DNA from: Eubacterium sp.
GTDB lineage: Bacteria; Bacillota; Clostridia; Oscillospirales; Acutalibacteraceae
Length of the DNA: 64,000 bases
Assembly (NCBI GenBank): GCA_017463985.1
Contig: JAFUEH010000001.1
Location: forward strand, 51,933-115,932
Direction of reading: 5' to 3'
Numbering within the stretch: the stretch's first letter is position 1; every line of letters starts with the position of its first letter. The translations under genes were made by a program, and so were the position numbers. Of the stretch, positions 1 to 19,370 are shown piece after piece. The notes beneath the pieces were generated by a model. It saw only the letters and a list, made by a program, of their open reading frames with translations. It was not told the origin of the DNA and did not search any database.

Positions 1-2128
1 CATCGACCATCTGATTATAAATATCGGAGGTCGTCTTTCTGTCTTGGTTGTCACCGCAGGTATAAACGCCGTCAGCGATCGCGTTCGCCAGCTCCGCATA
101 CTTATTTTCGCGGTCGATTGCGCCGCGGCTGGTCGGAAGCGGGTTATCGCTTCTGAAATAGCGCAGTGAGCGCGCCAGCCAGTTAGCATAATCGCAGATC
201 ACTGCCAGACTGGTGATACGTGAGAACGCCAGCTTCAAGTTAATATAGCCGGTGTACTGATCAAAATAGGCGATCGAATAGGCCAGGAAGTTATTCTTCA
301 GCGGATGCTGCTCAAAATGCTGTCTGAAATAATCATTCAGCCGATTGGCGTTTGCATCAGTCGATGTCTTAAAACAACGATAGAGCTGATCGGCCGGCAG
401 CGCATCGCCGCGGTTATACAGGTTCACAAGCCCTGTTGCGGTATTCCGAAAGTCCTCGTTTGTAATCACAGAATCAAAAGTGTCCAGCAGGCGAGAGAGG
501 TCATAAACGTCAATGCTGTACGCACTTGCCTCGCCGCCGGCCGTCAGCGTGTTCACTTGACGGACCGCAAAGTCGTTTATCGCGCTCTTAAGCTCCGGCG
601 TGCGCAGGTTACTGATAGACTGAATAATTTCAGTCAGCAGCGCAATGCTGCCGTTAACGGCATACAGGCCGTTCAGGCGGTTGACCACTGCCTCAATAAA
701 ATCCGGATTCGTGTTCAGCCCATCGTCAAGATACGGCTGATTTTTTTCAATATACGACACCTCGGCCATCAGGTCTCTGACGGTGCCGTGCTTTGCAAAC
801 TGCTCGCCGAAATACAGCGCGATCGCGCGGCTGTCCTTATTGATGAAACGGCTGTTTACCACGCCGCCGATCTCAAAATGATCGCCGCAGATCAAAAGCT
901 TTGCCAAAAATTCCTCTTTATTACCGTTGCTGACAGAATAGGCAATGGAGTTTAAAATCAGCTCAATCAGCGCGTCCTTTTCTGCCTCTGTGGCGGAGTC
1001 GTAAATATCGCACACACAGGGGAGCTCCTCCAGGTTGAGGTCGCCGCCCTTCGCAGCGGCTGCGCTGGCGATCAGGCCGCGCATATATGGCAGCACCGGC
1101 TGTGCCGTGCCGAACAGCTTCTGAATATCAAAATACACAGAGGCGGCCAGCGGCAGGGTATCCGGATCGCCCACTACAAACAGCTTCGCGACCTGTTCAA
1201 AGGACGCCATGGCGTCCGGCTTCAGCTGCGCCTGCTCATTGATAATGTCCAGTATGCTGCCGAAGGTTTCCGGCGAAGCATAAAACTGCTTTACCAGCTG
1301 AATATAATCAGAAGGCGTGTCGAGCGTTCCCTCACCGTCAAACAGCACGCGCTGCGAGGTCAGATCAAAGCAGTAATCCCGGTTAATAATGGAGCCGAAC
1401 AGGTTGCCCCTCTCGGCATCGGGCAGGTTACCGCTACTGATGAACGCAATGCTGATATTGGCCGGCAAGCCCTGATTGTTGAGCAGAGTGGTATAGCCGA
1501 TCTGATTGCGCAGGCAATACGGAATGAAATAATAGATTGCCTTTAAAATATCCAGAGACTCGTAAGTGTCCTCGATCTTCTTCGCCACCAGGTACACCTT
1601 TTTGCCGTTGAACACACTATTCATAACAGCGTGCACGATCTGTGCAAAAAAGCTGCCGTCGTACTGGCTGTTGATCAGGGTGATATACTCCGTTTGGGCA
1701 TATTTATCTTCAAACGGCAGCTCCGCCAGCTGGTCCAGCGGCTCATTAGAGCCGTCGACATGAGAGGAAATGAACTGCGTAACACCGGCCAGCTTGCGAA
1801 TATCAAGTGCCTGCGCCGCCAGCTCCGGCGAATCCTTTTTCATAATATAGGCATGCGCAATATGTACGTGCTTAATGCCGTCATAGCTCATATAGTCATA
1901 CGGCTTTGTACCGCACAGCATCACATTGCCGTCCGCCAGCGTCATACGGGTCACAACGTCCAGCTTGCCGGAGGCACCCTTTACGTCAGCACCGTTATAG
2001 GTATATAATTCGTTATAATTCTGCGCGTCGCCTGTGCTGAGACCAACGGAAAACCGAACGGTGTCATAACCGGCGCTTTGAAGAAAATAACCTTTACTGC
2101 TTCGCGTATATAACTGTTGCTCTATCAT
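1..2128 (-). CDS. GAP1-like GTPase-associated protein (partial, 3' end off window)
   Basis: The minus-strand frame is open from an ATG at 2128 to the window edge, about 709 codons with no stop, so the C-terminus is missing. A good ribosome site (AAGGAGACAGCC) precedes the ATG. The N-terminus (IEQQLYTRSSKGYF, then SAGYDTVRFSVGL) and the later FIPYCLRNQIGYTT segment resemble the N-terminal and middle parts of the GTPase-associated protein 1 (GAP1) family, which is known from operons with P-loop GTPases in bacterial conflict-type loci. It starts 11 bp after the stop of the zinc-ribbon GTPase gene and is probably its partner or regulator. No catalytic residues are recognised. The family call rests on remembered motif similarity and operon context, not on a search. 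Confidence 0.6.
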   Translation of the reverse strand, partial: MIEQQLYTRSSKGYFLQSAGYDTVRFSVGLSTGDAQNYNELYTYNGADVKGASGKLDVVTRMTLADGNVMLCGTKPYDYMSYDGIKHVHIAHAYIMKKDSPELAAQALDIRKLAGVTQFISSHVDGSNEPLDQLAELPFEDKYAQTEYITLINSQYDGSFFAQIVHAVMNSVFNGKKVYLVAKKIEDTYESLDILKAIYYFIPYCLRNQIGYTTLLNNQGLPANISIAFISSGNLPDAERGNLFGSIINRDYCFDLTSQRVLFDGEGTLDTPSDYIQLVKQFYASPETFGSILDIINEQAQLKPDAMASFEQVAKLFVVGDPDTLPLAASVYFDIQKLFGTAQPVLPYMRGLIASAAAAKGGDLNLEELPCVCDIYDSATEAEKDALIELILNSIAYSVSNGNKEEFLAKLLICGDHFEIGGVVNSRFINKDSRAIALYFGEQFAKHGTVRDLMAEVSYIEKNQPYLDDGLNTNPDFIEAVVNRLNGLYAVNGSIALLTEIIQSISNLRTPELKSAINDFAVRQVNTLTAGGEASAYSIDVYDLSRLLDTFDSVITNEDFRNTATGLVNLYNRGDALPADQLYRCFKTSTDANANRLNDYFRQHFEQHPLKNNFLAYSIAYFDQYTGYINLKLAFSRITSLAVICDYANWLARSLRYFRSDNPLPTSRGAIDRENKYAELANAIADGVYTCGDNQDRKTTSDIYNQMVD

Positions 2129-2139
2129 GGCTGTCTCCT

Positions 2140-3954
2140 TTATTGATTCAAATACTGCGCGTTGATAATACCGAATTTAGAAAGCACCCAAAGCAACGGC
2201 TCGTCCACACGCCACGGTGTGATCTCACCGTCCAGCACCTTCACGGTTTCTGTCTTTTGCTCACCGGTCGCCGCATCCACTATATCATTTTGATAGGTGA
2301 TATAGCTATAACCGTCCAGCTCCTTGATTGCCTTCTTGTTACCGCTCTCGTCCATCACGATCTTATCGACATAACGGGTACCAAGTGCGGATACAGCGAA
2401 GAACTTGTTATCCGTGAATTTACCGTCAACATAGCTGACATAACCGGAGTCATTGCGCGAGAGCAGCTGCTGACGCACAAAAGCGTCGATCATATCCACG
2501 TCTCTCAGATTGAGGCAATTCACGGTCTTTGTAGTACCGCCGGACAGGATGTGGGCGTTCTCCGCCAGCACACTGTCGTCAATACAGTTATTCTGCACGG
2601 CTCGGTAGATCTCGTCGCTCTTCGTACCGACAAAGGCCACCGGACGGTCATCCTGCGCACTGGCATCCATATCCGAAAATGCAGAATTATAGGTGGTTGT
2701 CAGCCAGTCAAGCGAGGTCGGCTGGTTACCGATACGCGAGGCGCGCTTCTTATCAATCTGTCGCTTTGTATCATTCACCGACTTCAGCGCCGCGATCTCG
2801 TTAGCGGAAAGCTCCTTGCCGATAATGCTCTTGACCTGCTCCGAAAAGCGCTCCATCGTCGCCAGCTCTTCTGTATAACGCTCGCGCAGGCTGCGCTCCT
2901 TGGCTTCCTTTTCTGCCAGCTGACTTTTCAGTCTGTCCTGCATAATACCGGTCGCGTTCGCCACCTGTCTTGCCAGGCTTTCCCGTTCCTCCGCAACGCC
3001 TTGAATCATCGCACGGGTGTTTTCAACATCCGGCAGGTTGACGTTCAGACGGCTCAGCGCGTCATACTGATCCGGCGAAAAGCCCATGCCGCTGTACACC
3101 GCGTTAATGCTCTCCTGCAGCTCACGGATATTATTCTTTTTACACGCGTCATAGAGCGAACGCGTCGCCGTGAGGTCAAAGAGCAAAATCAAGCCATCCG
3201 CGTGCTGGAACTGATCCTGGCTATACTTGGCGATATCGTCCGGCGTTGACTCACCCGGAAAATCATAAAAGCTAAGAACCGTCGTGGCGCGTGTAACGTT
3301 GTTATACAGCTTGCAGATGATGGGACGGATGTAACCGCGGTTGGTGGCAACGATCTCGCCGTTTTCAATCGCTTTCTTCTGCTGTCTGTAATCCTCTATC
3401 ATCGACGGTTCCTCGAAGTTAAAGGTGAAATTATTAAATTTACGGTTAATGTTGAGCATCTCAGCAATCAGGCTGTTGATGAACACCGTTTTACCGATCT
3501 GGGTAGAACCGATTACCGCGATTACCTTTGCATCGCCGTTACCTGCAGAGGAAGGAATCTTATTGTGGCAATGCGGACAAAGCCTGGTTTTGGCCGGCAC
3601 ATTAGAGCCAGCCGGCGTAAACTCATCCAGGATCTTGACCTTTTTGCCGTCCGTTGTGCTGACAATCTTATAGGTAGCATTACCCGGATCTACAGCCGGA
3701 TTATACGCCTTTCTCACGACGCACGGATAGCTGCTGTGCTTGAAGTCCGTATAGAAGGCTTTTAACAGCTGATCCTCCTCAACCTCGTCTGAGGCATCCG
3801 CTCTGAAATGTACATCGTTCACAGAAAACTGCTTAAAGCAGTAAGGGCATACGATCATGCCCTTCTTTCTGTTTTTGGCAGCCGTCTTTTCATTCTTCTT
3901 GACCTTGGCTGCCTTGTCGTTGTTGTTTCCTTTTAATTTATCAAACAGTCCCAC
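2140..3954 (-). CDS. Zinc-ribbon GTPase with coiled-coil insert (double-GTPase 2 type)
   Basis: 604 aa from a GTG start preceded by AGGAGGGG at a rather long spacing. Two CxxC pairs (CPYC at 36-39, CPHC at 126-129) form a probable split zinc ribbon ahead of the GTPase. An intact Walker A (GSTQIGKT, 149-156), a switch-II-like DFPG (231-234) and a base-recognition TKSD (444-447) define a TRAFAC-type GTPase. Between the DFPG and TKSD motifs lies a long charged helical region (about 315-405) that reads as a coiled coil. The layout fits the double-GTPase 2 family. Membrane recruitment or filament regulation next to a tubulin-like protein is inferred from context. It lies between a pseudo-GTPase paralogue and the GAP1-like gene in one tight operon. 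Confidence 0.7.
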
Positions 3955-3987
3955 GGTTTATTTTGTCCCCTCCTGTACCTTGCTAAT

Positions 3988-5268
3988 TTATGCCTGCGGC
4001 GGCTGTGCTGCCTGTGGCGGTTGCGTTGCCTGCGGCGGTTGCGCTACCTGCGGCGGTTGTGCTGCCTGCGGCGGTTGCGTTGCCTGCGGCTGTTGCGCTA
4101 CCTGCAACGGCTGTGTTGCCTGCGGCGGCTGCGCTGTCTGTGGCGGTTGCGCTGCCTGTGGCGTCTCCTTTTGCTTCAGCTCTTTCAGATTGAAGCTCTT
4201 GATGAGCCATTTGATCGGATTTTCAAAATCCGGTGTTGCAGCGCCGCTCACATTACCGACGCTGAAAAAGCAATTATTACGCAGCGTGCTTTCCACAGTG
4301 ATACGTAAATTGTTGTCCAGCTCGCTCAAAACACTGTCTGTGTAACCGTCGATCGCATCCGCCTCATAATTGCCAAAGCTGCGCCGATCCGGCGTAATAT
4401 GGGTTTTGTGTGAATAAAGATAGTCCTTGTCCGTCAGCACGATCGCCGCCGGGAAGGCATCCTCTGCAGTGCCGCTGTAGCCAATGGTACCGCCGATATG
4501 CAGCAGGTATTCCATCGCGTTGGTATTATCCACAGAGCGATGCACACTGCGGTCCATAAAGCACTCCAGATCGCTGTACTCCTCTACCAGGATCATACCG
4601 TTAGCCATTGCCAGCAGATCATGCAGCAGCGCCGGAGAATAACGGCCGAGCTCCTCCATGCCGAGCGGTAAGTAGGTCACCGTGAATTCACACAGCAAAC
4701 TGCCTTTAATACTGTAGAGCAGCTTGCCCATCAGCAGCTTTTCCTCCTCAAAGGTCAGCCCGTCCATCGCGTTGGTGTCCAGCGCCCGTGCAACCTGCTC
4801 CTGCGGCGAGAAAAAGTCGACATATTCTATCGTACAGTCGCGGTACAATACCTCAAACAGCTTTTTTGTGTACTGAAAAGCCAGCTCCGCGTTGCTGCCG
4901 GCAACAATAATATTGGCCGTATTGACAAAGCCGATATTCGGCGGCAGCGGATTGTGACAAACAGGACAGAGGCGTTCCTGTGAAACAGCGCCGCTTTCGT
5001 CGGTATACGCCACCGGCACCTGCCGCAGCGCCTTGTTCATCACCGTGATGACGCCTCTGCCGTGCCCGCGAGAGGTAACGGCCATATTGCGAAAGCAGAA
5101 TTCCGTTTTATCTCCCGTCACCTGCTGACGGTACTGTGTCAGCTTCTGATCCGGCTTATTGGCCAGATACGGACTTAAACTGCGGAACTGAATGTGATCC
5201 AGCTTCGACTGATGTAAACAGAACGGGCATACAAATGTATCCCCGATTTTGTTGATTTTGTTACTCAT
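3988..5268 (-). CDS. Zinc-ribbon pseudo-GTPase with Gln/Pro repeat tail
   Basis: 426 aa. It is a paralogue of the downstream GTPase: CPFC (14-17) and CPVC (101-104) sit in the same split-ribbon arrangement, followed by a beta-strand and loop where the P-loop should be. That loop reads GSNAELA (124-130), so the Walker A lysine and Ser/Thr are gone. No DxxG or NKxD-like motif is evident. The last 55 or so residues are a 6-residue repeat of the QPPQA(T/A) type, which should be disordered and may tether or bind a partner. The ATG at 5268 has GGAG upstream. It is probably a structural or regulatory subunit of the active GTPase (inference). The exact fold beyond the shared ribbon layout is uncertain. 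Confidence 0.65.
3990..4165 (-). repeat. In-frame 18-bp tandem repeat encoding Gln/Pro hexapeptides
   Basis: About nine imperfect copies of an 18-bp unit lie at the 3' end of the pseudo-GTPase gene and encode [12 protein letters not shown] variants. Translated on the plus strand the same DNA gives a spurious Cys/Gly-rich ORF. The unit length keeps frame, so copy number could vary between strains without disrupting the protein. Confidence 0.85.
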
Positions 5269-5290
5269 GTTTGCTTGCTTCTCCGAAAAA

Positions 5291-5917
5291 TTATCCGCCG
5301 ATCAAAACGTAGGAATTTGCCATCTGACTATCCCTGAATTCCAGCTGAATGCCCGTCTCACTATATTGTGCCATACTGATTCTTGCCGTCTTAACCACAG
5401 CAGGCAGCGGGAAGAAAAAGCCGTTCATCACATAGCCGATCGTACCGGCCGCCAGCTCCTGGTCACAGTTGATTACCAGCTCCGCCGGCGTCACGCTTTT
5501 TATCTTGCCGAACAGGTTCTTGGTGATCACCTGCGGTGTAAAGCTGTACGTAATGGGAATTTTCACCTGCACCACTTTGACAATGTTCGTTTTGTCATCC
5601 TCCGGCGCCAGCTGCACGCGGCAGTGCTCGCCGTTTTGAAAGATCACCGGTGCAATACGGTAATAGGTATCGCCCTCCGCGCTGGCCGGCAGCTGAAAGC
5701 GTCTGTTTTGGTGGTTAAACGCCTCCAGCGACACGCGCATCGCCCGATCGAACTGATAATTTTCTCCGCCCTCGTCGCAGGGAATCACGTCCAGCGCGAT
5801 CACGCTGATGCCGCTGGGGTCATTAATATTCAGCAACGGAATATGTACATTGATTTTATTCGGCTCCGGTGCCCGTTCCAGCACGACTGACCGAATGAAC
5901 AAACTTTCAAAAGCCAT
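5291..5917 (-). CDS. Hypothetical beta-rich protein of the GTPase/tubulin operon
   Basis: 208 aa, not recognised. The ATG at 5917 follows GGAAGG and starts 2 bp after the stop of the membrane vWA gene, so the two are co-transcribed and probably coupled. There is no signal peptide or membrane segment. Alternating hydrophobic and polar residues with many Val/Ile strands and few helices suggest an all-beta fold. Two stretches (KINVHIPLLNIND and VKIPITYSFTP) look like edge strands of a sandwich. It may be an adaptor between the membrane vWA protein and the GTPases, but only position supports that. Confidence 0.6.
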   Translation of the reverse strand: MAFESLFIRSVVLERAPEPNKINVHIPLLNINDPSGISVIALDVIPCDEGGENYQFDRAMRVSLEAFNHQNRRFQLPASAEGDTYYRIAPVIFQNGEHCRVQLAPEDDKTNIVKVVQVKIPITYSFTPQVITKNLFGKIKSVTPAELVINCDQELAAGTIGYVMNGFFFPLPAVVKTARISMAQYSETGIQLEFRDSQMANSYVLIGG

Positions 5918-5919
5918 CG

Positions 5920-7230
5920 TTAAAACCTTCCTATCGGACCGGTATAATCGTTACCGGTGGTACTCTGTCCGAATTGATTCACCTGTTGCGAGCCGTACAT
6001 AGCGGTGGGATCCCACTGATTGGCCGGCTTCGCAAACTCGTCCTTGATCTCGTAGGAAATTGCCGCCGTAAAGATGCAGACCACAATGGAAAGCAAAATA
6101 TCCATCAAGGTACGGCAGAAGCGTGTATTCAGGTAAGCATACATACCGAGCTCCATAGCCAGACCGGCTAACAGACCGGTGACGGCGCCGCCCAGCAGCA
6201 GGTTTTTGAAAAGCTGCTTGTTGTCAAACATCGCACCGATCGCCGTGCCGAGCAGCAGACCGAACAGTGCAATAAAGATGACGCGCTCAATGCCGTAAAT
6301 CGCGGTCGTTCTCTCTCTGCCGTAGCGTCTTGCCAGCAGCAGGCGAGAGTTGCCGATATGGCGCTTAATGTTGGTGAATACGCCTACCAGCTGGTCAGCT
6401 GACTGAATGTCGTAATAATTACCGCCGGTACCGTCCGCCAGCTCGTTCATGATCTTGCCGCTGGAGAACATGCTGATACCGAGACCGATACAGTCAACCG
6501 AAATGTTGTTTTTGGTGCACTCCTGGATAATCGGATTGGTATCGAAGAAATCCTCACCGTCCGACAGCAGTACCAGCGCCATGCTTCTGCCCGGGATCGC
6601 CTGGCTCTTCACATCCTCCAGCGCCATGGTCAGCGCGCCGTTAATATCCGTTCCGCCGCCGTCGTTATAGGCATTGTCGATCGCGGCGTGCATCTGCTCC
6701 TTACCGGCAGCGGTTGCATACTGAAAATCGAATACCGGCGTTACGGTATCGCTGAAAAGATAGTAAGCCACACGTTTGGAATCGTCCAGCTCATCGATCA
6801 GCTTGTTGACCTCGGAATAGCGGAGCTCCTGCGGGTCGTTGCCGTACATACTGCCGGAATCGTCAATAATAAATACATAGTCGTCGATCGGAGGCGCCGC
6901 TACCTGCTTTACATTCAGACCGTAGATGAACTGCGTCAGGCAGCCCGTGCCGAACATCAGGATCGCTGCCAGCGGAATCACGATCAGTGCATTTTTCCAA
7001 TCCTTGCTCTGCCACTTAACACCGGTCAGACGCGGCTTGATTTTCTCTGCAAGCAGACACATCGTCAGCACGCACAGGCCAAATACGCCAAAATACATAC
7101 CGACCAGCAGTACGTTCGGGATACGGTACATATAGAAGTTAATGATCGCCTCACCGAAGATGTAGCCAATGATGCCGCCGATGATAGAAAACACCAGCAT
7201 CAGTCCGTTAATATGTCTTGATTTGTTCAT
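5920..7230 (-). CDS. Membrane-anchored vWA-domain protein (3+3 TM helices)
   Basis: 436 aa. Three hydrophobic helices in residues 8-105 are followed by a von Willebrand factor A domain with a complete metal site: DDSGSM (123-128), the GGGTD threonine about 70 residues later, and LLSDGED. Three more helices follow (about 290-400), then a Gly/Gln-rich polar tail. vWA domains with an intact MIDAS bind Mg2+ and a partner acidic residue, so this is likely the membrane docking component of the operon. Which side of the membrane holds the vWA domain is not clear, because the positive charges near helix 4 conflict with an outside placement. The ATG has AGGAGGTAA upstream; the previous gene ends 5 bp away. 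Confidence 0.75.
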   Translation of the reverse strand: MNKSRHINGLMLVFSIIGGIIGYIFGEAIINFYMYRIPNVLLVGMYFGVFGLCVLTMCLLAEKIKPRLTGVKWQSKDWKNALIVIPLAAILMFGTGCLTQFIYGLNVKQVAAPPIDDYVFIIDDSGSMYGNDPQELRYSEVNKLIDELDDSKRVAYYLFSDTVTPVFDFQYATAAGKEQMHAAIDNAYNDGGGTDINGALTMALEDVKSQAIPGRSMALVLLSDGEDFFDTNPIIQECTKNNISVDCIGLGISMFSSGKIMNELADGTGGNYYDIQSADQLVGVFTNIKRHIGNSRLLLARRYGRERTTAIYGIERVIFIALFGLLLGTAIGAMFDNKQLFKNLLLGGAVTGLLAGLAMELGMYAYLNTRFCRTLMDILLSIVVCIFTAAISYEIKDEFAKPANQWDPTAMYGSQQVNQFGQSTTGNDYTGPIGRF

Positions 7231-7235
7231 GAGCG

Positions 7236-9140
7236 TTACCTCCTGTTAATATTCTGTAAAACGGTTAAATCGTCGGCCGCAGCCACCGTTCTGTAGGACA
7301 GGCACCGGAAAATGGAGGTACCCTTGACGTTCAGCACAGAAAAGTCGCCGTTCTTCGCCCGTTCATTCATGAGGTCAACCACCTTGCTCTTGTGGTTGCC
7401 GTCTACCGTCATATCTGTCATAATTATTTGCCGTGTCGTCTGCGTCTGATTCGTCACGCACATCGACAAATCAGCCTTTGCCAGCTGATTGCTCAGCCAA
7501 TGACCGGCCTCGTCATAGCTCAGGTTTTCAATGTCCTGCTCATAGCTGTTCATCTGGCCGAGCAGCACCGTCCTGACAACATGCTCTTCAAAGAAATTGA
7601 AGATCGTTCTTTCAAAATTATCGATATTGTCAACATCCAGGACAATATCATTACTTTTAATAATACTTTGAATCGTGGCCGTTTTTTCAATCACGGCGCC
7701 CTCATAGCGCTTGGCCAGCGCCATGTTCATTTCGTTGTCCATGGCGATCGCTTCGTTCTTGCAGCGCTCGGTAGCGTCCCTGATGCTGCGCATCGTTTTG
7801 TCAATCTTGGTCACGATATTGGCGTCAGGGTCGCTGAGGTATCTCAGCACCACCTGTCTGGCAGTCGAGATCATCTCATTGACCTTGCTTTGGATAATAT
7901 CCATGATAATGCCATCCACGGCAGCGTCCTCGCGCGCCGTAAACTGGTAGCTCTTGGCTTCATAAGCGTTTGACGCACCAAAGCCCTGCAGCAGCTGCTG
8001 CTCCTTCGCCCTGATGGTTTCCGCCAGCTTTTTGGTATTGTCTAAGCCGTACTGATTAAAATAGTTCATTAGATACGCTACGAAGGCTTCACGTATCTGC
8101 TCCTCGCTGAGCGTATTGATATGGCGCCTGTTCAGATTGATTTCCACAAAATCCCGAATAGCGTTGTTATATTCTGCGTCGATCGCTTTAAACGGATATA
8201 ACCCGTCCGTCAGCTGATTCCGGCGCAGCAGGTATTTGGTGTTAGCAAGGCACTCCTGCGCAAAGGCTTCGATCGCGCCGACCTGCTGTCTCAGGAGCGT
8301 ATTACGAATATCAAAGCTGTATTCCGGCGGAATCTTGCTCCCGTGCTGGAATACATCCAGAATCGTATCGGAGAAAATATCGAAGCCGATAATGTACACG
8401 GTTTCCATCGGCAGGTCCGCCTTAGAAAAGCCGGTCAGCACACTCTTGCCGGCTACCACGCAGTCATTCAGCGAGGCAGGCTTGTCCACGTTATTAATGA
8501 TAATAATATTAGAAGCGACGCTGTTATAGATCGTCGTCTTAGGAATCGGCTGGTTAGAAACCTCAGACACATCGCCAAACAGCAAGGACTTGATGGAGAA
8601 ACGGAACTCTGGCGAAAGCAATGTTTCCTGTAAAGAAAAATAGAACTCGCTCAGCTTTTCGCACATCTCCAAACTGGCAGTAGAAATAAGAGAATACAGA
8701 TAGGTATCCATGTTAGAAAAGCGGAATGACGTTTTCTTGTAAATCGTCGTCAGGATCTCCTTCAGCCAGTCCACCGCACCGTCATAGGTTTTCATAACGA
8801 TATTGACGGATAAGGTGTGCGCGTCCGTGGCGGTAGAATCGCCCAGCGCCTGATCACAGACCTTGCCCAAGACGTCCTGTAACGTTGCTGTCTCCTTAAT
8901 CGTGGCATACGCAACAGAGTCGTAATTCATCCAGAAATTGCCCGTCAGCGCTTCCACCGTGTTACGGCAGGTATCGAGATCGATCACCGGCTCCTTGCCG
9001 TCCTCAGCCGCCTCATTATCCAAAAACAGCACGATCATCGGATGATCGTGTTTTTTACGCGCCTCGATGGTGGTGTCCACGTTTTTTCTATACGCCTGTA
9101 TATATTCTTTTGCTCGTAAAATAATGTCCTTATCTTCCAT
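7236..9140 (-). CDS. Hypothetical 634-aa helical protein of the tubulin-like operon
   Basis: Not recognised. The frame extends to a TTG at 9230, but that codon has no ribosome site and would add a low-complexity Ala-rich leader. The ATG at 9140 (MEDKDIILRAKEY) has GGAG 11 bp upstream and is preferred. No signal peptide or membrane segment is seen. The N-terminal 250 residues mix strands (PMIVLFLDN, IIIINNVD, VYIIGFDIF) and helices; the C-terminal half is strongly helical (about 350-550) with likely coiled coils. No Walker A motif is present. Its place between the tubulin-like and membrane vWA genes suggests it links filament to membrane, but this is inference. Confidence 0.65.
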   Translation of the reverse strand: MEDKDIILRAKEYIQAYRKNVDTTIEARKKHDHPMIVLFLDNEAAEDGKEPVIDLDTCRNTVEALTGNFWMNYDSVAYATIKETATLQDVLGKVCDQALGDSTATDAHTLSVNIVMKTYDGAVDWLKEILTTIYKKTSFRFSNMDTYLYSLISTASLEMCEKLSEFYFSLQETLLSPEFRFSIKSLLFGDVSEVSNQPIPKTTIYNSVASNIIIINNVDKPASLNDCVVAGKSVLTGFSKADLPMETVYIIGFDIFSDTILDVFQHGSKIPPEYSFDIRNTLLRQQVGAIEAFAQECLANTKYLLRRNQLTDGLYPFKAIDAEYNNAIRDFVEINLNRRHINTLSEEQIREAFVAYLMNYFNQYGLDNTKKLAETIRAKEQQLLQGFGASNAYEAKSYQFTAREDAAVDGIIMDIIQSKVNEMISTARQVVLRYLSDPDANIVTKIDKTMRSIRDATERCKNEAIAMDNEMNMALAKRYEGAVIEKTATIQSIIKSNDIVLDVDNIDNFERTIFNFFEEHVVRTVLLGQMNSYEQDIENLSYDEAGHWLSNQLAKADLSMCVTNQTQTTRQIIMTDMTVDGNHKSKVVDLMNERAKNGDFSVLNVKGTSIFRCLSYRTVAAADDLTVLQNINRR

Positions 9141-9235
9141 AATGTCAACCGCTCCAAAAGATGATTGCACAGCTGCCGCCGCTTGTATTGCATTGGCGGC
9201 AGCCGTCTGCGCCGTGACCGGCGCTTTCAAGTTTT

Positions 9236-9259
9236 GGGAGGGCAGCTCACTGCCCTCCC
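9236..9259 (-). other. GC-rich intercistronic hairpin after the tubulin-like gene
   Basis: A perfect 10-bp inverted repeat (GGGAGGGCAG / CTGCCCTCCC) with a 4-nt loop lies between the tubulin-like stop (9294) and the next start (9140). On the minus transcript it is followed by AAAAC, not a U-run, so it is not a standard terminator. It could stabilise the upstream message or set the ratio of tubulin-like protein to downstream subunits. Confidence 0.6.
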
Positions 9260-9293
9260 GTTATGAATTGTGCATTACAGCACCGCAAGGGGC

Positions 9294-12200
9294 TTACTGG
9301 ATACCTCTCAGATAAGCGATCACGATGTTATAGAACGTGATGATTGCCTCTGCATCGCCAAGGAAATCTCTGTTGAATTCCGCTGTCTGCTTCTTGCTCT
9401 CCAGCTCTTCACGCAGCGCCTGAATGGTCGGTACATATACCGTATCATAATCGCTGTTCTCAAACTCCTGGAATTTTGCTTCAATATCCTTCTTGAACTG
9501 TGCAAACTGTGCCGTCGGCAGCTTGCCCTCGTTGTAAAGAAGATTGAAGAGGTCAAAATGCGGATATTCCTTGTTCTTCAGCTGAGAGTTGCTGACCAGC
9601 TCGATCGCTTCGATCGCGTCGTTAGCAGGATTGTAAAGATACTTCGGACCCTGTCTTACAAGAATCTTGGTCAGGTAAGCCTGCGCAAATTCTGTGTAAG
9701 CTTCGAACTGCTTCATATCCTCAGAAATCTCTTCTACTGCCTTTTCGATCGCTGCATACTTGGCATTTTCCTTCTCTACTCTCTTGATGAGCTGGTAGGA
9801 GGAGGCGAACCAAAGCTTGGCAGATTCTAAGGTCTTACCGTGCTGAATCTGAATTCTCTGATAACCGTCGCCGGCATAAGCAGGTACGTCGCCCGGCAGG
9901 TCGGTGGTGGTGTTCAGATAGCTCTTCAGCTGGTTGCACAGTGCACCAAGTGCGCTCGGTGTCTTCGCCGTACCGGCGCGCAGTGCCTCGATGTCAATAT
10001 TGCCGGCAAATACCGCAATATGGTTGTCGTCCGGCTCAGAAAATCTGATAACGCCGTACTTCACAGCCTCGTCAAAGATCGCGTTCGCCTTGGCAACACG
10101 CTCTTTTTCACGCGGGTTCTGATAATTTGCGGACCAGGTGCTCTCCGGACACAGAGCCGGCAGGTCTCTCCAGTTGACATCACCGTGCTGATACAGATGT
10201 ACACCTGCTGCACCGGTAACAAGCTGGCTCTCATATACCTTCTCATAATTCTCGATAATGGCATAGCTGTAAATCGGCACACCGTAAAGCGCCTTCGTAT
10301 AGGTGATTCTTGAACGGCTGTCGGACTCTGCTACCTGCTCGCCCTTCTTGCCGGCATGAGCAGCCTTCACGGCGGTCAGGATTCTGTTGCACTGCTTCGG
10401 TACCTGAATCAGCATTCTGCCGGGGATCGTAGAACCGGCGTCAACCTTGAAGCCCGGACGGTCATTGAACATGATCGCCGCCTCGCTGGTCAGCTGATGA
10501 TCAAACTGGTACTGAATATACTCTTCAAAGGAGTTTGCACCGTTCGGCTCTCTGTTGTACTTTTCTTCCAGGAAGGCCTCCAGACCGAGATCCAGTGCAT
10601 CCGTAAATTCCTGCGTCAGGAAATTGGTAAGGTCATCAAAGACAGTATACTGGCTGACATCGTCGGTGCTCCAGCTTTCTCTCTTGTCCCAGATCATTTT
10701 GTACAGGTCGTTAACCGGCACCTCTAAGCCCTTCTTGTCAAGAATTTCCTGAATCTTGGAATTGACATCGGTAAAGCTGACAACATACCAGCTCATGACA
10801 ACGCCCTCGTAGGTCTTTCTTCTGTCAACGTTGCCCATGATGTCCATATTCTCATCAAAAATCTTATGGAGCGAGGTCAGGGTTTCATAGATAACGCCGA
10901 ATACCTCGTGGTTGGCCTTGATGATCATATCCCGCAGATCCTGATAAATCTTAATCAGGCGGGTATTGATATGCTGCTGCAGCATCGTGCCGAACAGCGT
11001 TTCCATCGCCGTCATGTACTCGCCGTAGTATTTTTTCTTGTTAAACAGCGTGCTCTGCAGCTCCTGTAACGCCTGCTGTGCCGCTGCCTGCAGATTCTGC
11101 AGTCTGGCATTGATATCGTTATTGGCCGCTACAAGCATATTTAACTGCTGGAAGCAGTAATCGTAGGCATTCAGCTGCGTACCGCCGCCGACGCCGACAA
11201 GAATATCGTTCGCAAAGCGCGGACCGTAGTTCGGCTTTTTATTCGGGTTCAGCGGATCGGGGAAGAGCAACGGCGCCGTGTTCTCAAAGAAGCCGCGCAG
11301 CTTATCGGTAAAGTTATCTTCGATATTCTTCATGAACAGATCGCTGGCGAAGTTAGCGTCCACCTGTGCTTTGATCTGATTGTACATGCCAATGAAGTCC
11401 GGGCTGCCGCCGGAATTCTTCTGCGAAACTCTGTCAACAGCGGAAGCCGGATAGGACTGCGGCTCCTGCTTAATGCTCGAAAAGCTGAACGGTACGTTCG
11501 CCATCAGCTTCTGGGTCAGCGTGCCGGGGTCAAAGCCAAAGTAGGCCGGACCGACGATCTGCTGTACCTCTTGCGTCGACGGCTCACCGTGAGCCTCCCA
11601 CATCTCGTTCACGCGGTCAAGCAGCTTGGAGGCAAGGCAGGTCATGATGTCCTGTACCGGCAGGATACGGCCGGAGGAGCCGATGATACCGTAGCGATAG
11701 CCAACCGGCTTTACCAAACCCTTAGCGGACAGGCTGGCCACCATGTCGATAATGTCCTTGTTGACATTATTCTGGAACGACCACGGACCGATGGAATCGT
11801 TGTTAGCATCGTTAGCAATGAAGAAAATAACATTCTCCGCAATGACCTGCATCGCCGTATCGTACGGATCGCTAACCGGGTTACCGCCCTCAAAATAGGA
11901 GGTAACGAAGTTAACCAGGGAGTACGGCTTATTTCTGGAATAGATCGTACGCGGACCGTAATCCTGTACAAAGGTTTCGTGACGGTCTTCCAGACCCATC
12001 AGGTAGTCCAGCTCTTTCATAGCGGCATAGCCGTTACGGCCGATACACTCAGCGCTCTTATTCTTTTCGTTAATATCCGGTGTTACGAAGTAGCCGAACA
12101 TAACCAGTCTGTCCCAAATCAGATCTGCGTCCGTCATACCGAGCGCGCTCTTAGCAGCAGACTGAATAATATACGGGATATCCAGGAAGGTACCCGAACC

Positions 12201-12818
12201 GGTACCACCGGAAATACCGCCCAGTACATAAACATACAGCTTACTGTTCGGGTCATTACGGCTGGAAGCCGTCAGCGCGTTGATTGTGCTGGTGAACTTG
12301 TTGTAGATGGTGTCAAAGGTATTGAACAGGCACAGTCTGGCGATCTGACGTACGCCGTTCGCACCGCCGGAAGCATCCTCGATCGCAAGACCGGAAGCAA
12401 GCCAGTCGGTTACATAAGTACGCTTATTCTCTACCGCGTGCTGTACAAAGCCGGACAGCGTCGTGGTACCGATATTCAGCTCCTCGTCTCTTTCGATATA
12501 CATACCCCTGTACATTCTGCCGGGCTGACCGCTCGCCTTGTCAGGGAAGAAGGTTTTATCGGTATCAATACCGATGAACTTGATGTTATCCGGCACAGTC
12601 TTACGCTTGCCGCTGTGAACATCCTTACCTGTCTTAAAGATTTCGTTAACCTTCGCCTTAACTCTCAGTAACGCATCGATACCGGAGCCGCCAAGACCAA
12701 CTACCAGGATCGGTTCACTCTGGATATTGATTTTAGACAAATCCGAGATGAAATTAATACCGCCCTCTGAGAAATTGGCTTGGTTAAGAACATCTTTTTG
12801 TTGTGGTGAAATAGCCAT
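9294..12818 (-). CDS. Very large tubulin/FtsZ-like protein (Tubulin_2 type)
   Basis: 1174 aa from ATG 12818, which has GAGGAGGAAATTT upstream (the longer MRRKF start lacks a site). Residues 37-48 (LVVGLGGSGID) form the N-terminal nucleotide-binding turn. Residues 200-211 (GGISGGTGSGTF) are the glycine-rich tubulin signature that contacts GTP phosphates, GGxxGGTGSG-type as in FtsZ and tubulin. FtsZ has about 350-400 aa, so some 700 residues here are extra and mostly helical. Divergent bacterial tubulin-like families with vWA and GTPase neighbours are known and have been proposed to act in membrane remodelling. It is the first full-length gene of the operon. Polymerisation is predicted, not shown. 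Confidence 0.85.
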   Translation of the reverse strand: MAISPQQKDVLNQANFSEGGINFISDLSKINIQSEPILVVGLGGSGIDALLRVKAKVNEIFKTGKDVHSGKRKTVPDNIKFIGIDTDKTFFPDKASGQPGRMYRGMYIERDEELNIGTTTLSGFVQHAVENKRTYVTDWLASGLAIEDASGGANGVRQIARLCLFNTFDTIYNKFTSTINALTASSRNDPNSKLYVYVLGGISGGTGSGTFLDIPYIIQSAAKSALGMTDADLIWDRLVMFGYFVTPDINEKNKSAECIGRNGYAAMKELDYLMGLEDRHETFVQDYGPRTIYSRNKPYSLVNFVTSYFEGGNPVSDPYDTAMQVIAENVIFFIANDANNDSIGPWSFQNNVNKDIIDMVASLSAKGLVKPVGYRYGIIGSSGRILPVQDIMTCLASKLLDRVNEMWEAHGEPSTQEVQQIVGPAYFGFDPGTLTQKLMANVPFSFSSIKQEPQSYPASAVDRVSQKNSGGSPDFIGMYNQIKAQVDANFASDLFMKNIEDNFTDKLRGFFENTAPLLFPDPLNPNKKPNYGPRFANDILVGVGGGTQLNAYDYCFQQLNMLVAANNDINARLQNLQAAAQQALQELQSTLFNKKKYYGEYMTAMETLFGTMLQQHINTRLIKIYQDLRDMIIKANHEVFGVIYETLTSLHKIFDENMDIMGNVDRRKTYEGVVMSWYVVSFTDVNSKIQEILDKKGLEVPVNDLYKMIWDKRESWSTDDVSQYTVFDDLTNFLTQEFTDALDLGLEAFLEEKYNREPNGANSFEEYIQYQFDHQLTSEAAIMFNDRPGFKVDAGSTIPGRMLIQVPKQCNRILTAVKAAHAGKKGEQVAESDSRSRITYTKALYGVPIYSYAIIENYEKVYESQLVTGAAGVHLYQHGDVNWRDLPALCPESTWSANYQNPREKERVAKANAIFDEAVKYGVIRFSEPDDNHIAVFAGNIDIEALRAGTAKTPSALGALCNQLKSYLNTTTDLPGDVPAYAGDGYQRIQIQHGKTLESAKLWFASSYQLIKRVEKENAKYAAIEKAVEEISEDMKQFEAYTEFAQAYLTKILVRQGPKYLYNPANDAIEAIELVSNSQLKNKEYPHFDLFNLLYNEGKLPTAQFAQFKKDIEAKFQEFENSDYDTVYVPTIQALREELESKKQTAEFNRDFLGDAEAIITFYNIVIAYLRGIQ

Positions 12819-12876
12819 AAATTTCCTCCTCAAAGAATTTTTTCTGCATTGCTATAATACAAAATAATGCAAAAGT

Positions 12877-12919
12877 ATAATATCATAATATGCGCCGTAA
12901 AGTAAAGGAATTTTCGACA
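12877..12919 (-). promoter_or_regulatory. Candidate promoter and Spo0A box for the tubulin-like operon
   Basis: On the minus strand, TTTACT (12906-12901), 18 bp, then TATTAT (12882-12877) form a moderate sigma-A promoter. A perfect 0A-box heptamer TGTCGAA lies at 12919-12913, upstream of the -35, about 95 bp from the start codon. The heptamer is expected several times by chance in 64 kb, so the regulatory reading is tentative. Confidence 0.4.
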
Positions 12920-12993
12920 TTTTTTATGAAAAAATCAACATTCTTTTGCCCTGCGGAGCACAATTATAAAAAGGGTTAAAATTTTATGAAAAT

Positions 12994-13272
12994 TCAATAA
13001 AAATCGGATCGATTTTTTAACTGAATTGTAACTTTTTTGGATGCTTTTTCCATTATTCGGTTGCCCGTTGAGAACGCTGTCAAACTGACGTTGAAGATAT
13101 CGTTGACAGCTTCCTTCACGCGCAGCATCGCGTCAATACCGGTACCGCCTAGGCCAATCACCAACGCCGGTCCTCCTTGATAGGGATACTGTTGCTCGTG
13201 CGGCGGACGGTACAGCTCACCGCTCGCAGCGCGGAAACAGTCCAGATTGCTCTTTTGTTCTTGTGTCAGCAT
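12994..13272 (-). pseudogene. Truncated tubulin-like paralogue (N-terminal fragment)
   Basis: 92 codons with a strong ribosome site (AAGGAGGAGAAACC). Residues 34-60 (LVIGLGGTGIDAMLRVKEAV and on) closely match residues 38-65 of the full-length tubulin-like protein (LVVGLGGSGIDALLRVKAKV). The similarity then fades and the frame stops, so the glycine-rich GTP signature is absent. It sits directly upstream of the intact gene in the same orientation. The simplest view is a decayed tandem duplicate. An expressed short form that binds or caps the full-length protein is an alternative, since the ribosome site is well preserved. Confidence 0.65.
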
Positions 13273-13577
13273 GGTTTCTCCTCCTTAATGTTGCTGCCTG
13301 TCGCAGTACTACAAAAAAGTGATCGCTCGGCATTCAGGAAAATCGCACGGGCAGATGCATTTTTTTGCTACGTCGACAAAATGTGACAGTAATATAATCA
13401 TATTATACTGCGATCAACGCCAAAAAGCTATTAGCTGGCAGCGTACATTTTCAGTAAAATTTTGCAAAAAATCACGATGTAAGAAAAACCGAACGCGAAT
13501 TATTTGAATTTAGTTGACAAAAAGCAATATTTTATGATAAAATTTTTTTACTGATTTTCTAAGGAGAGATGATAAAC
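13273..13577. other. Intergenic region between truncated tubulin-like ORF and vWA gene
   Basis: About 300 bp, AT-rich. It holds the vWA promoter (13514-13543), a near-match 0A box on the minus strand (TGTCGAC, 13378-13372, about 100 bp before the truncated ORF) and an imperfect palindrome of CAGTAATATAAT-type sequence around 13387-13411 that could be an operator. No gene is seen. Confidence 0.4.
13514..13543 (+). promoter_or_regulatory. Sigma-A promoter of the exported vWA gene
   Basis: TTGACA (13514-13519), 18-bp spacer, TAAAAT (13538-13543), about 35 bp before the start codon of the vWA gene. Confidence 0.6.
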
Positions 13578-15395: not shown

Positions 15396-15415
15396 TCAAT
15401 CGCCGCAAGGCATAA

Positions 15416-15458
15416 CAAAAAGCTGCAGATCAGTTCCCTGATCTGCAGCTTATTTATT
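15416..15458. terminator. Terminator after the exported vWA gene
   Basis: A perfect 14-bp stem (AAGCTGCAGATCAG, loop TTCC) at 15420-15451 is followed by a T-rich stretch. An A-run on the left side lets it also work for the convergent minus-strand operon. Confidence 0.85.
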
Positions 15459-15592
15459 TTCCGTTTAACCCTCTGTTTAAGTCGCTATATTATTCTATAC
15501 GCTTTATGATGTTCTGTCCCGTAGGCACCGTGAAGTGCTATGAGCGATTGGATACTTTCCGTTTGCGTATCGCTAAACGAATTAGCTATCTG

Positions 15593-16435
15593 TCAGGAGC
15601 GCCGGCTGCGGCTGCTGCCCTCTCTTTGCTGCCGGACAAAGGTTACCAGCAGTACATAAAACAGCACGCTCAGCACCAGTCCTACTGCCAGCAACAGCGA
15701 AAAATATTTCTGTACCAATCCGGCCGCTACCGCCTGATAAACCGCAGGCGACAGCAAAATCCGTTCATTCACGTGGAGCAGGAGGCAAACAGCTGCGCCC
15801 AGCAGGATGCCGAACGAGCCGGCCGCTGCACCGCTGCACAAATACACCGCTGCCTTTTTACGGTCGGAATAAAGCAGCGTTATCAGCAATGCGCTCAGTA
15901 CTGCCAAGCCGGCAGCCAGCGCCAGGATACCGGAAACACGGTGTCGGATCGACAGCACCTTACTGCTCACGCTTTCCACCTCGTGCAGGCCGACAGTTTC
16001 ACCGTAAATCACAGCAGCCTTATCGGCGGCACGGTGAACGTCCGCCTCCTCGTAGCGCGCGCCGCTCTCGTCCAAATATTCCGTGCAGAGGTTCTCGAAA
16101 TAATCCACCATATTGTCGTTATACAGCAGCGTATCCTCCGCGCCGAACGCATTCTGGAACACGCTAGACAGCGTGGTGCGCACCGGATTTTCCTCCGTCA
16201 CCGCCATGAACACCCTGGAGGGAATACCCGTTTCCTCCTCCAGCACTGTGTACTTTACCTCCAGCTGGTCAGTGCAGGCAGTCGCCAACTCGTCCGTCAC
16301 AAAGTTTTGTTCCAGATAGGTACGGTTGGAGAGCGTCACATTCATCGCCAGCATACTGATCAGCAGTGCCATCGCAATCGCCAGCAGCACCGACAGCACA
16401 GTTGATAAAATTCTTCTGGTTGCACTAATGCCCAT
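15593..16435 (-). CDS. Hypothetical four-helix membrane protein
   Basis: 280 aa, not recognised. A first membrane helix (about 10-32) is followed by an outward-facing soluble region of some 130 residues (acidic, with AAVIYGETVGLHEVE near its end), then three helices (about 168-190, 200-222, 240-265) and a short basic tail (RQQREGSSRSRRS). Its start overlaps the stop of the upstream gene in a TAATG arrangement, so translation is coupled. It is the last gene of a three-gene operon that converges on the exported vWA gene. The topology resembles an envelope sensor or assembly factor, but nothing fixes a function. Confidence 0.65.
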   Translation of the reverse strand: MGISATRRILSTVLSVLLAIAMALLISMLAMNVTLSNRTYLEQNFVTDELATACTDQLEVKYTVLEEETGIPSRVFMAVTEENPVRTTLSSVFQNAFGAEDTLLYNDNMVDYFENLCTEYLDESGARYEEADVHRAADKAAVIYGETVGLHEVESVSSKVLSIRHRVSGILALAAGLAVLSALLITLLYSDRKKAAVYLCSGAAAGSFGILLGAAVCLLLHVNERILLSPAVYQAVAAGLVQKYFSLLLAVGLVLSVLFYVLLVTFVRQQREGSSRSRRS

Positions 16436-16992: not shown

Positions 16993-17045
16993 ATTAAAAT
17001 CCCTGCCTTGTGTCTGTCGGATTAAAATAACGGGTGGTTGCTGTT

Positions 17046-17897: not shown

Positions 17898-18017
17898 GGC
17901 TGTTTCCTTTCGCACAAATAATATTTTTTCACGGAATACTCCATTTTATTTTCTCATATATTATACATCAAAAAAAGGCTGTTGTCACTAATTATTTTCT
18001 ATTAATTCATTTTTATG

Positions 18018-18046
18018 TTGATATTGTCCGCAATTTGTGTTAAAAT
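18018..18046 (+). promoter_or_regulatory. Sigma-A promoter of murI
   Basis: TTGATA (18018-18023), 17-bp spacer, TAAAAT (18041-18046), about 54 bp before the murI ATG. Confidence 0.7.
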
Positions 18047-18099
18047 ACTTAATCTATAAGAATGGATAAGTATGCATATTTATATATGAGGATGATTTT

Positions 18100-18915: not shown

Positions 18916-18922
18916 GTACACT

Positions 18923-19348: not shown

Positions 19349-19370
19349 CAACGCATTAAAGGAAACAATC

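What the first reader, a model, noticed from the sequence alone, without database searches (positions are those of the whole stretch)
1..12818. Seven-gene tubulin-like / GTPase / pseudo-GTPase / GAP1 / vWA operon
A very large tubulin-superfamily protein with the intact GGxSGGTGSG signature is encoded with an active zinc-ribbon GTPase, a catalytically dead paralogue of that GTPase, a GAP1-like protein, a membrane vWA protein and two unknown proteins, all co-directional with gaps from 2 to about 150 bp. The combination reads as one membrane-associated nucleotide-driven machine. Tubulin-like, vWA and GTPase links are known in outline from comparative genomics, but this particular full set, with the pseudo-GTPase and the 634-aa and 208-aa subunits, is to my knowledge not functionally described.
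Basis: partly seen in the sequence, partly recalled or inferred. Interest (0 to 1): 0.9.

Follow-up and report, generated by a model that had tools for sequence, protein, structure and literature searches.

The report
Tubulin–GTPase operon carrying a toxin-like cassette
The seven genes are the front half of a longer bacterial operon: a tubulin/GTPase/membrane-sensor set already known from genome surveys, joined here to a motor ATPase and what looks like an effector-and-immunity gene pair, which suggests a cytoskeleton-like machine that deploys antibacterial toxins.

Summary
In detail: all seven genes are present, co-directional and tightly packed. The core set is not new. It is the Firmicutes tubulin theme of the GAP1-N2/DO-GTPase systems predicted by Kaur et al. 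2020; 62 of 79 named loci keep one gene order.

The window edge cuts the finding. The run continues to 14 co-directional genes: GAP1, three predicted membrane proteins, a zinc-ribbon/4-TM protein, a HerA-like ATPase, a 617-aa acidic-repeat protein and a 133-aa protein. A divergent vWA gene (13569-15395) belongs too.

Genomes of three other genera carry a related HerA downstream of tubulin/vWA. In two of them the next genes are an LHH nuclease toxin, a SUKH immunity protein and a TNT toxin. Other HerA relatives sit with dynamin or HSP70 proteins, often beside toxins.

The 634-aa protein is probably the degenerate second tubulin (weak direct evidence). The 208-aa protein is a standard subunit. 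The pseudo-GTPase is peculiar to this genome.

Best reading: a tubulin/GTPase-gated, HerA-driven polymorphic-toxin machine. This genome's own effector has no known family. The HerA/toxin link was not found in nine paper searches. Function is inferred from gene context only.

The parts
9294..12833 (-). Tubulin-superfamily (FtsZl1/Tubulin_2) protein, 1179 aa (ATG at 12818), intact T4 loop GGISGGTGSG
   Evidence: Pfam PF13809 E 2.6e-44; motif at residue 205; relatives in 79 named loci
7236..9230 (-). 634/664-aa protein; positional counterpart of the ~800-aa degenerate second tubulin (no GTP-binding loop)
   Evidence: ~800-aa family vs tubulin family hhalign 96.4%, E 1.2e-9; GG[TS]G[SAT]G in 0 of 72 of that family, GGTGSG in 73 of 78 tubulins. 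The window protein itself: score 35 (14.5%) to the family plus order-level relatives, against a maximum of 26 in 30 shuffles; only 0.7% to the order-level relatives alone and 0.2% to the tubulins
5920..7230 (-). vWA protein with five predicted TM segments, MIDAS DxSxS intact
   Evidence: Pfam VWA E 3.3e-19; hydropathy and motif scan
5291..5917 (-). 208-aa subunit, counterpart of the ~211-aa core gene
   Evidence: hhalign 71.8%, E 3.5e-5 over 80 columns to the ~211-aa family, same operon position
3988..5268 (-). Pseudo-GTPase: DO-GTPase paralogue with zinc ribbon, P-loop lost, low-complexity tail
   Evidence: hhalign to the GTPase family 98.7%, E 4.6e-16; the only one of 79 clustered members without a P-loop
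2140..3954 (-). Active-type DO-GTPase with two N-terminal CxxC pairs, P-loop, DFPGE, TKSD
   Evidence: Pfam DO-GTPase2 26.0 bits, just under the cut-off of 27; hhalign to family 99.9%, E 1.1e-35; motifs
1..2128 (-). GAP1 (N2 type), 891 aa with one predicted TM and a polar acidic tail; runs past the window edge to -547 (L002:13386-16061)
   Evidence: GAP1-M 33.5 bits, GAP1-N2 23.2 bits and 26.7 bits; hhalign to family 99.7%. The run continues outside the window in L002: 230-aa 2TM, 159-aa TM, 796-aa TM, 374-aa Zn-ribbon-like/4TM, 885-aa HerA, 617-aa acidic-repeat protein, 133-aa
13569..15395 (+). Divergent second vWA protein, 608 aa: N-terminal hydrophobic (signal-like) segment, vWA domain, C-terminal TM
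   Evidence: VWA E 2e-17; TM scan; a vWA-family gene lies within two co-directional ORFs upstream of the tubulin in 75 of 79 named loci
12994..13272 (-). 92-aa N-terminal remnant of another tubulin gene
   Evidence: 54% identity over 39 aa to the tubulin N-terminus; G086 and G104 carry two tubulin genes

Best explanation
This is a GAP1-N2/DO-GTPase/tubulin system that has acquired a HerA-ATPase, effector and immunity module, and it works as a membrane-anchored machine that deploys polymorphic antibacterial toxins. Inferred steps: (1) the two vWA proteins sit at the cell surface and sense or bind an external ligand; (2) the GTPase/pseudo-GTPase pair with GAP1 is the switch; (3) the tubulin, with its degenerate partner, forms the GTP-dependent scaffold at the membrane; (4) the HerA hexamer, held by the zinc-ribbon/4-TM protein, captures the next gene's product by its acidic disordered N-terminus and threads or delivers it; (5) the last small gene protects the producer. 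Shown: the gene set, its order, its repeated linkage in four genera, and toxin/immunity identity in two tubulin-linked relatives. Not shown: polymerisation, export, toxicity or delivery, and the toxin nature of this genome's own effector.
For: Four genomes of four genera have a related HerA downstream of tubulin/vWA genes: G000 (this genome), G303 (49% identical, another family) and G580 (50%, same family), and G866 (39% to the G580 HerA, another family). In G303 and G580 the genes after HerA are LHH nuclease (E 2e-19, 1e-17), SUKH immunity (1e-11, 2e-12) and TNT (3e-20, 3e-19). G866 has vWA, tubulin, vWA-TM and DO-GTPase in the same order ahead of HerA. Of 29 HerA loci examined (27 genomes), 14 have a toxin next to HerA or one gene away: 10 over Pfam cut-off, 4 by homology to those. 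SUKH immunity was recognised in five. The gene after HerA (27 of 29 loci have one) has a less hydrophobic first 80 residues (median 0.26 vs 0.39 in 254 other genes of the same loci, one-sided p 2e-10) and more acidic ones (0.19 vs 0.125, p 4e-6; loci are not fully independent). In the four tubulin loci it is 26-36% D/E. HerA-toxin modules also pair with dynamins (Pfam in two HerA loci; Lactococcus plasmid annotation), and HerA pairs with HSP70 (G952, G840), so a swappable NTPase partner recurs. The window's 14 genes have gaps of at most 63 bp, or about 153 bp with the 634-aa start.
Against: The window's own effector candidate (617 aa) and 133-aa gene match no Pfam or NCBIfam family, and the effector's C-terminal domain has no relative at E <= 0.001 in 294 other genomes of the order; its papain-like Cys/His/Asp set is my reading only. 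15 of 29 HerA loci, among them G000, G866 and both HSP70 loci, have no recognised toxin. In G866 the genes in the places of the 634-aa, 208-aa and GAP1 genes are assigned by position only (hhalign 0.7%, 11.5%, 25.7%; no GAP1 in Pfam). HerA was not found in 23 of 23 searched core-carrying genomes, so the core does something without it. G303 and G580 show no GTPase/GAP1 in the stretches fetched. No secretion channel was identified.
Confidence: 0.4

Rival explanations
1. An intracellular anti-invader (altruistic) system, as Kaur et al. propose for GAP1 systems: GTPase/GAP1 sense infection and set a threshold, tubulin and HerA form a cage or ring, and the effector kills or disables the infected producer. 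HerA-nuclease phage-defence pairs are a precedent.
For: The core is predicted as a conflict system in PMC7159879 (passages and section 27). HerA-DUF4297, an ATPase-nuclease phage-defence complex, is reported (search listing with abstract starts only). The G580 HerA's sequence relatives among solved structures are DNA helicases/HerA, and NCBIfam gives the window's HerA a weak match to antiphage HerA, 28 bits against a cut-off of 800. Nuclease and TNT domains can act inside a cell (recalled).
Against: SUKH-type immunity genes sit beside the toxins in five loci, a hallmark of toxins delivered to neighbours (recalled; PMC3482391 seen in passages only). PADLOC, run on six window genes and the fragment but not on GAP1 or HerA, gives one weak match (mad8, E 1.7e-4, to the GTPase).
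Confidence: 0.3
2. The core is a cell-envelope or membrane-remodelling apparatus (FtsZl1 hypothesis of Makarova and Koonin 2010), and the HerA/effector genes are an unrelated passenger inserted downstream.
For: PMC2875224 (parts 1-2 of 5 read) proposes membrane remodelling; HerA was not found in 23 of 23 core-carrying genomes searched; this genome's locus lies in a variable stretch beside a block conserved in nine congeners.
Against: A related HerA follows tubulin/vWA genes in four genera, with a zinc-ribbon/TM or TM gene upstream of it (in G303 separated from HerA by tubulin fragments); in G303 and G580 tubulin, vWA and HerA are joined without GTPase/GAP1 in the stretch fetched.
Confidence: 0.2
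3. A DNA-handling module: HerA with nucleases processes or transfers DNA, and tubulin positions it, as TubZ does for plasmids.
For: HerA family members are DNA translocases (NCBIfam CedD/HerA matches far below cut-off); plasmid-borne relatives exist in 42 records.
Against: Effectors beside HerA relatives include non-nucleases: TNT and papain-fold Gln_amidase and an annotated ADP-ribosyltransferase, with immunity proteins; no relaxase or partition family was hit among the operon's proteins.
Confidence: 0.08

Closest known systems
GAP1-N2-type DO-GTPase systems, Firmicutes tubulin theme (Kaur, Burroughs, Iyer, Aravind 2020, PMC7159879; abstract, section 27 and passages seen)
   Same: DO-GTPase with zinc ribbons, GAP1-N2/GAP1-M with polar tail, tubulin-domain genes, two vWA genes (one multi-TM)
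   Different: HerA appears in that main text only in a reference title, so HerA, the zinc-ribbon/4-TM protein and toxin/immunity genes are not described there with GAP1; one GTPase here has lost its P-loop; the 230/159/796-aa TM proteins have no relatives among the neighbourhoods clustered
FtsZl1 (Tubulin_2) / vWA / GTPase operons (Makarova and Koonin 2010, PMC2875224; parts 1-2 of 5 read)
   Same: Large tubulin protein with a long C-terminal region; vWA and GTPase partners
   Different: No occurrence of HerA, FtsK or peptidase in that main text; function proposed there is membrane remodelling
Polymorphic toxin systems (Zhang et al. 2012, PMC3482391; passages seen)
   Same: Toxin domains (LHH, TNT, WHH) at the C-terminus and an immunity gene next door, in relatives of this locus
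   Different: The HerA/FtsK links in the passages seen concern T7SS and T4SS; here the N-terminus is acidic and repetitive, with no WXG/LXG match; this genome's own effector domain is unrecognised
HerA-DUF4297 and related HerA phage defence (search listing only)
   Same: HerA ATPase next to an effector enzyme
   Different: Other effector families, SUKH immunity genes in relatives, and a large tubulin/vWA/GTPase set

Membership tests
GAP1-N2 DO-GTPase system (Kaur 2020) | DO-GTPase with N-terminal zinc ribbons | tested here: met
   DO-GTPase2 26.0 bits, under the cut-off of 27, but hhalign to the family 99.9%, E 1.1e-35, whose L100 member is over cut-off (29.3 bits); CPYC/CPHC
GAP1-N2 DO-GTPase system (Kaur 2020) | GAP1 with N2 and M domains, encoded after the GTPase | tested here: met
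   GAP1-M 33.5 bits; GAP1-N2 23.2 bits on the protein and 26.7 bits, over the cut-off of 24, in the genome search, in both over profile 1-48 of 139; gene directly downstream
GAP1-N2 DO-GTPase system, Firmicutes tubulin theme | Two tubulin-domain genes with C-terminal coiled coil | tested here: inconclusive
   One clear tubulin; in relatives the second is the degenerate ~800-aa family (hhalign 96.4%); the window's 634-aa member is only weakly tied to it; coiled coil not tested
GAP1-N2 DO-GTPase system, Firmicutes tubulin theme | Two vWA genes, one with several TM helices | tested here: met
   5920-7230 with five predicted TM and 13569-15395
GAP1-N2 DO-GTPase system, Firmicutes tubulin theme | Second vWA fused to YtkA | tested here: not met
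   No YtkA among Pfam hits of the 608-aa protein up to E 0.1; a subtype feature, not the system's definition
GAP1-N2 DO-GTPase system (Kaur 2020) | FNIII-repeat protein | tested here: inconclusive
   No FNIII match in the 14 genes; the 208-aa or 608-aa protein may hold a divergent beta-sandwich (untested)
FtsZl1 / Tubulin_2 | Tubulin_2 domain with GTP-binding loop | tested here: met
   E 2.6e-44 over profile 1-353 of 356; GGISGGTGSG
FtsZl1 / Tubulin_2 | Tubulin fold in a predicted structure | not testable with these tools
   Structure prediction switched off; the family profile against PDB finds FtsZ at the loop only, best E 0.25, not significant
Polymorphic toxin system | Known toxin domain plus immunity gene | tested here: inconclusive
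   Window's 617/133-aa pair: no family. Tubulin-linked relatives G303 and G580: met. G866: not recognised
Type VII secretion system | FtsK-type EssC ATPase with WXG100 or LXG substrates | tested here: not met
   No WXG/LXG match among the 14 proteins up to E 1; in Pfam the ATPase matches HerA/DUF87 best
HerA phage defence (DUF4297/SIR2) | DUF4297 or SIR2 effector with HerA | tested here: not met
   No such domain in the operon or in the relatives' effectors scanned

The most novel reading that the evidence does not exclude
A new class of Gram-positive toxin-deployment machine: a HerA motor with a membrane anchor moves polymorphic toxins that carry an acidic disordered N-terminal tag, and its assembly is controlled by interchangeable NTPase scaffolds: tubulin plus DO-GTPase/GAP1/vWA, dynamins, or HSP70. 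The present operon is the most elaborate form seen here, with a tubulin/pseudo-tubulin and a GTPase/pseudo-GTPase pair, and would be a cytoskeleton-type toxin delivery apparatus.
Probability: 0.27. Interest if true: 0.9.

Novelty: new variant of a known kind. Interest (0 to 1): 0.62.

Why it matters
FtsZl1-type tubulins and their vWA/GTPase partners were predicted in 2010, and I found no experimental function for them in the papers searched. Finding them followed, in four genera, by a HerA ATPase, and in two of these by recognisable toxins with an immunity gene, gives a concrete phenotype to look for (killing of relatives or competitors) and named cargo to trace. If true, it adds a tubulin-scaffolded route to toxin delivery in Gram-positive bacteria.

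Tried and rejected
Rejected: the core set as undescribed (Kaur 2020 describes it). Rejected: a single tubulin system in the order. Clustering splits the Tubulin_2 neighbourhoods into this system and a separate four-gene type in 18 genomes. Rejected: contig contamination. argS, about 6 kb from the tubulin gene, is 73-78% identical in 10 of 10 congeners searched. Not supported: phage origin. No tubulin match among phage records and no HerA relative in viral contigs, in a scan that finds close relatives only.

Led nowhere: empty-site comparison on the left (0 of 17 congeners hold the flanking gene). On the right, nine congeners share argS and the gene at 17046-17915, and beyond it no relative of the system at E <= 1e-15 in the stretch fetched; one (L287) ends there. 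One congener, G008, has a weak tubulin match at a contig end (E 8.7e-7), not followed. PDB sequence searches with the tubulin, its profile and the effector domain gave nothing significant. Rfam: none in 1-20000. The 230-aa protein's SLATT match is only E 0.19. A first N-terminus statistic missed 11 loci through a faulty pattern and was replaced. Results against the pseudo-tubulin reading: the window's 634-aa protein scores 0.7% against the order-level relatives alone and 0.2% against the tubulins, and G866's positional counterpart has no support.

Limits: one search was given 24 of the 80 named loci, one was not held, and it had no positive control of its own, though the same query found matches. 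The 29 HerA loci come from the order, family and class hits; not fetched were the weak hits G052 and G240, family hits G368, G509 and G589, class hits G652, G883 and G927, and second copies in G866 and G958. G302 gives three of the 29 loci, and G804 and G844 are near-identical. G349 and G410 lie on contigs of 7.7 and 9.9 kb, too short to show a downstream HerA. The best-explanation odds were lowered from 0.42 to 0.40, and the novel case from 0.28 to 0.27, after searches gave no firm support for three of G866's genes.
Full report
Observation. The seven ORFs are present as described, all on the - strand. The tubulin-like protein matches Tubulin_2 over nearly the whole profile (E 2.6e-44) and has GGISGGTGSG. 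The GTPase has a P-loop, DFPGE and TKSD plus two CxxC pairs. The 426-aa paralogue has the zinc-ribbon cysteines but no P-loop. The vWA protein has five predicted TM segments and an intact DxSxS. GAP1 is identified by GAP1-M (33.5 bits) and GAP1-N2 (23.2 bits, 26.7 bits; cut-off 24).

The operon is longer than the window. The window is G000:C18:51933-115932, and the left flank (L002) continues the run. Lengths are: GAP1 891 aa, then 230, 159, 796, 374, 885, 617 and 133 aa. Gaps there are at most 47 bp, and at most 63 bp in the whole 14-gene run (about 153 bp with the 634-aa start). The 885-aa protein is a HerA/DUF87 ATPase (E 1.1e-8) with Walker A GLTGGGKT and LLLIEEAH. The 374-aa protein has a zinc-ribbon-like start (E 0.02 only) and four predicted TM segments. 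The 617-aa protein has an acidic region coded by 15 copies of a 21-base unit. It ends in a domain in which I read a papain-like Cys/His/Asp set; no family search supports that. Upstream, the divergent 608-aa gene at 13569-15395 is a second vWA protein, and 12994-13272 is a tubulin N-terminal remnant.

The core is a known kind. Of the 79 with a long tubulin ORF on the expected strand, 62 have the order tubulin, ~800-aa, vWA-TM, ~211-aa, GTPase, GAP1 (unclustered ORFs ignored), and 75 have a vWA-family gene within two co-directional ORFs upstream. In Paenibacillus illinoisensis (L100) GAP1-N2 scores E 1e-42 and DO-GTPase2 29.3 bits. Kaur et al. 2020 (PMC7159879; abstract, section 27 and search passages) describe this Firmicutes theme as a predicted conflict system. 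Makarova and Koonin 2010 (PMC2875224; parts 1-2 of 5 and a term search) describe the tubulin family as FtsZl1 with vWA and GTPase partners and suggest membrane remodelling.

The unknown subunits. The ~800-aa family is a degenerate tubulin. It matches the tubulin family at 96.4% (E 1.2e-9) over 440 columns, and none of 72 members has the GG[TS]G[SAT]G loop, while 73 of 78 tubulins have GGTGSG. Order-level relatives (G255, G086, G349) tie to it at 94.5%. The window's 634-aa protein is tied mainly by position. Its score to the pooled family is 35 (14.5%), against at most 26 in 30 shuffles, but it scores only 0.7% against the order-level relatives alone and 0.2% against the tubulins. The 208-aa protein matches the ~211-aa family at 71.8%. 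The pseudo-GTPase is the only one of 79 clustered family members without a P-loop.

The HerA link. With the window's HerA, 15 of 295 genomes of the order have a match at E <= 0.001 and 7 of 300 of the family at E <= 1e-60. With the G580 HerA, 17 of 391 genomes of the class match at E <= 1e-40. Four genomes have it downstream of tubulin/vWA genes: G000, G303, G580 and G866. Of ten genomes with this tubulin type in the order and family samples (G000, G224, G255, G086, G303, G104, G272, G349, G410, G580), three show HerA. G303 and G580 have vWA, tubulin, vWA-TM, zinc-ribbon/TM and HerA (in G303 with tubulin fragments before HerA), then LHH nuclease, SUKH immunity and TNT toxin genes. G866, of another family, has vWA (E 8.5e-14), Tubulin_2 (E 1.5e-55), vWA-TM (by BLAST) and DO-GTPase2 (38.4 bits) in this order before a TM gene and HerA. 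Its 588-, 200- and 921-aa genes stand where the 634-aa, 208-aa and GAP1 genes stand, but searches give them no firm support (GAP1 family 25.7%). Its 1318-aa effector candidate has an acidic repeat region and no recognised domain.

Across 29 HerA loci (27 genomes), 14 have a toxin next to HerA or one gene away: 10 over Pfam cut-off and 4 by homology to those. The other 15, this genome included, have none recognised. SUKH immunity was recognised in five loci. Dynamin-family GTPases accompany HerA in seven order-level loci by clustering and four class-level loci by BLAST; Pfam was run on one from each group and confirms both (E 3.2e-17; 1.6e-16). A Lactococcus plasmid has annotated dynamins, a HerA-like ATPase and an HNH gene in one run. 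G952 pairs HerA with HSP70 (E 9.5e-130) and a DnaJ-TPR protein, and G840 with two HSP70-like proteins (E 2e-9, 2.5e-12); neither shows a recognised toxin. The gene after HerA has an unusually polar, acidic N-terminus (27 loci).

Distribution. The core occurs without HerA: 0 of 23 core-carrying genomes from the named set have a relative at E <= 1e-20 (24 of 80 loci given, one not held). So HerA and its effector look like an accessory joined to the core. In this genus the locus is variable: nine congeners share argS and the gene at 17046-17915, and beyond it no relative of the system was found in the stretch fetched.

Mechanism and rivals. The gene context favours a membrane machine that deploys toxins, with the GTPase/GAP1 switch and tubulin scaffold controlling a HerA motor. 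The intracellular anti-invader reading remains a serious rival, because HerA pairs with a nuclease effector in phage defence (listing only) and Kaur et al. predict such a role. The immunity genes argue for delivery to other cells. Nothing here is experimental.

Literature. Nine searches of an open-licence library showed, in their listings, no paper joining tubulin, HerA and toxin/immunity genes; subscription papers and preprints were not searched. PMC3482391 was seen in passages only.

Noticed in passing
L036-L085 (18 genomes, e.g. L043:1074-15333): A second, distinct Tubulin_2 operon type in the order: ~850-aa protein (vWA in L043, E 4.1e-6), tubulin ~1200 aa, ~700-aa, and a 1300-1900-aa protein; no member of the GTPase cluster among them.
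   Followed up: partly
L232 (Lactococcus cremoris plasmid pB26B): WYL regulator, two dynamin-family proteins, two hypotheticals, HerA-like ATPase, HNH endonuclease and a small hypothetical in one run: a plasmid-borne dynamin-HerA-nuclease operon (annotation).
   Followed up: partly
L234 (Streptomyces clavuligerus plasmid): HerA-like ATPase followed by an annotated ADP-ribosyltransferase and a small hypothetical protein.
   Followed up: no
L255:72-8713: HerA, a 960-aa acidic-repeat protein and a 135-aa protein with weak YbjN/chaperone similarity, followed by HSP70 and DnaJ-TPR genes.
   Followed up: partly
L069 near 9720-10814: A tubulin gene fragment (137-aa ORF, with a possible 88-aa one) lies between the zinc-ribbon/TM gene and HerA in G303, a second case of a decayed extra tubulin beside this system.
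   Followed up: no
window 13514-13543: Promoter-like TTGACA-18-TAAAAT (11 of 12) just upstream of the divergent vWA gene.
   Followed up: no
L256:7676-9637: In G866, a 653-aa protein two genes after the effector candidate carries an NADase-translocation F5/8 type C domain (E 1.3e-24) and a weak SH3_3 match.
   Followed up: no
window 17046-17915: DUF7674 protein near argS marks the edge of the block shared with nine congeners; the tubulin system lies in the variable stretch beside it.
   Followed up: yes
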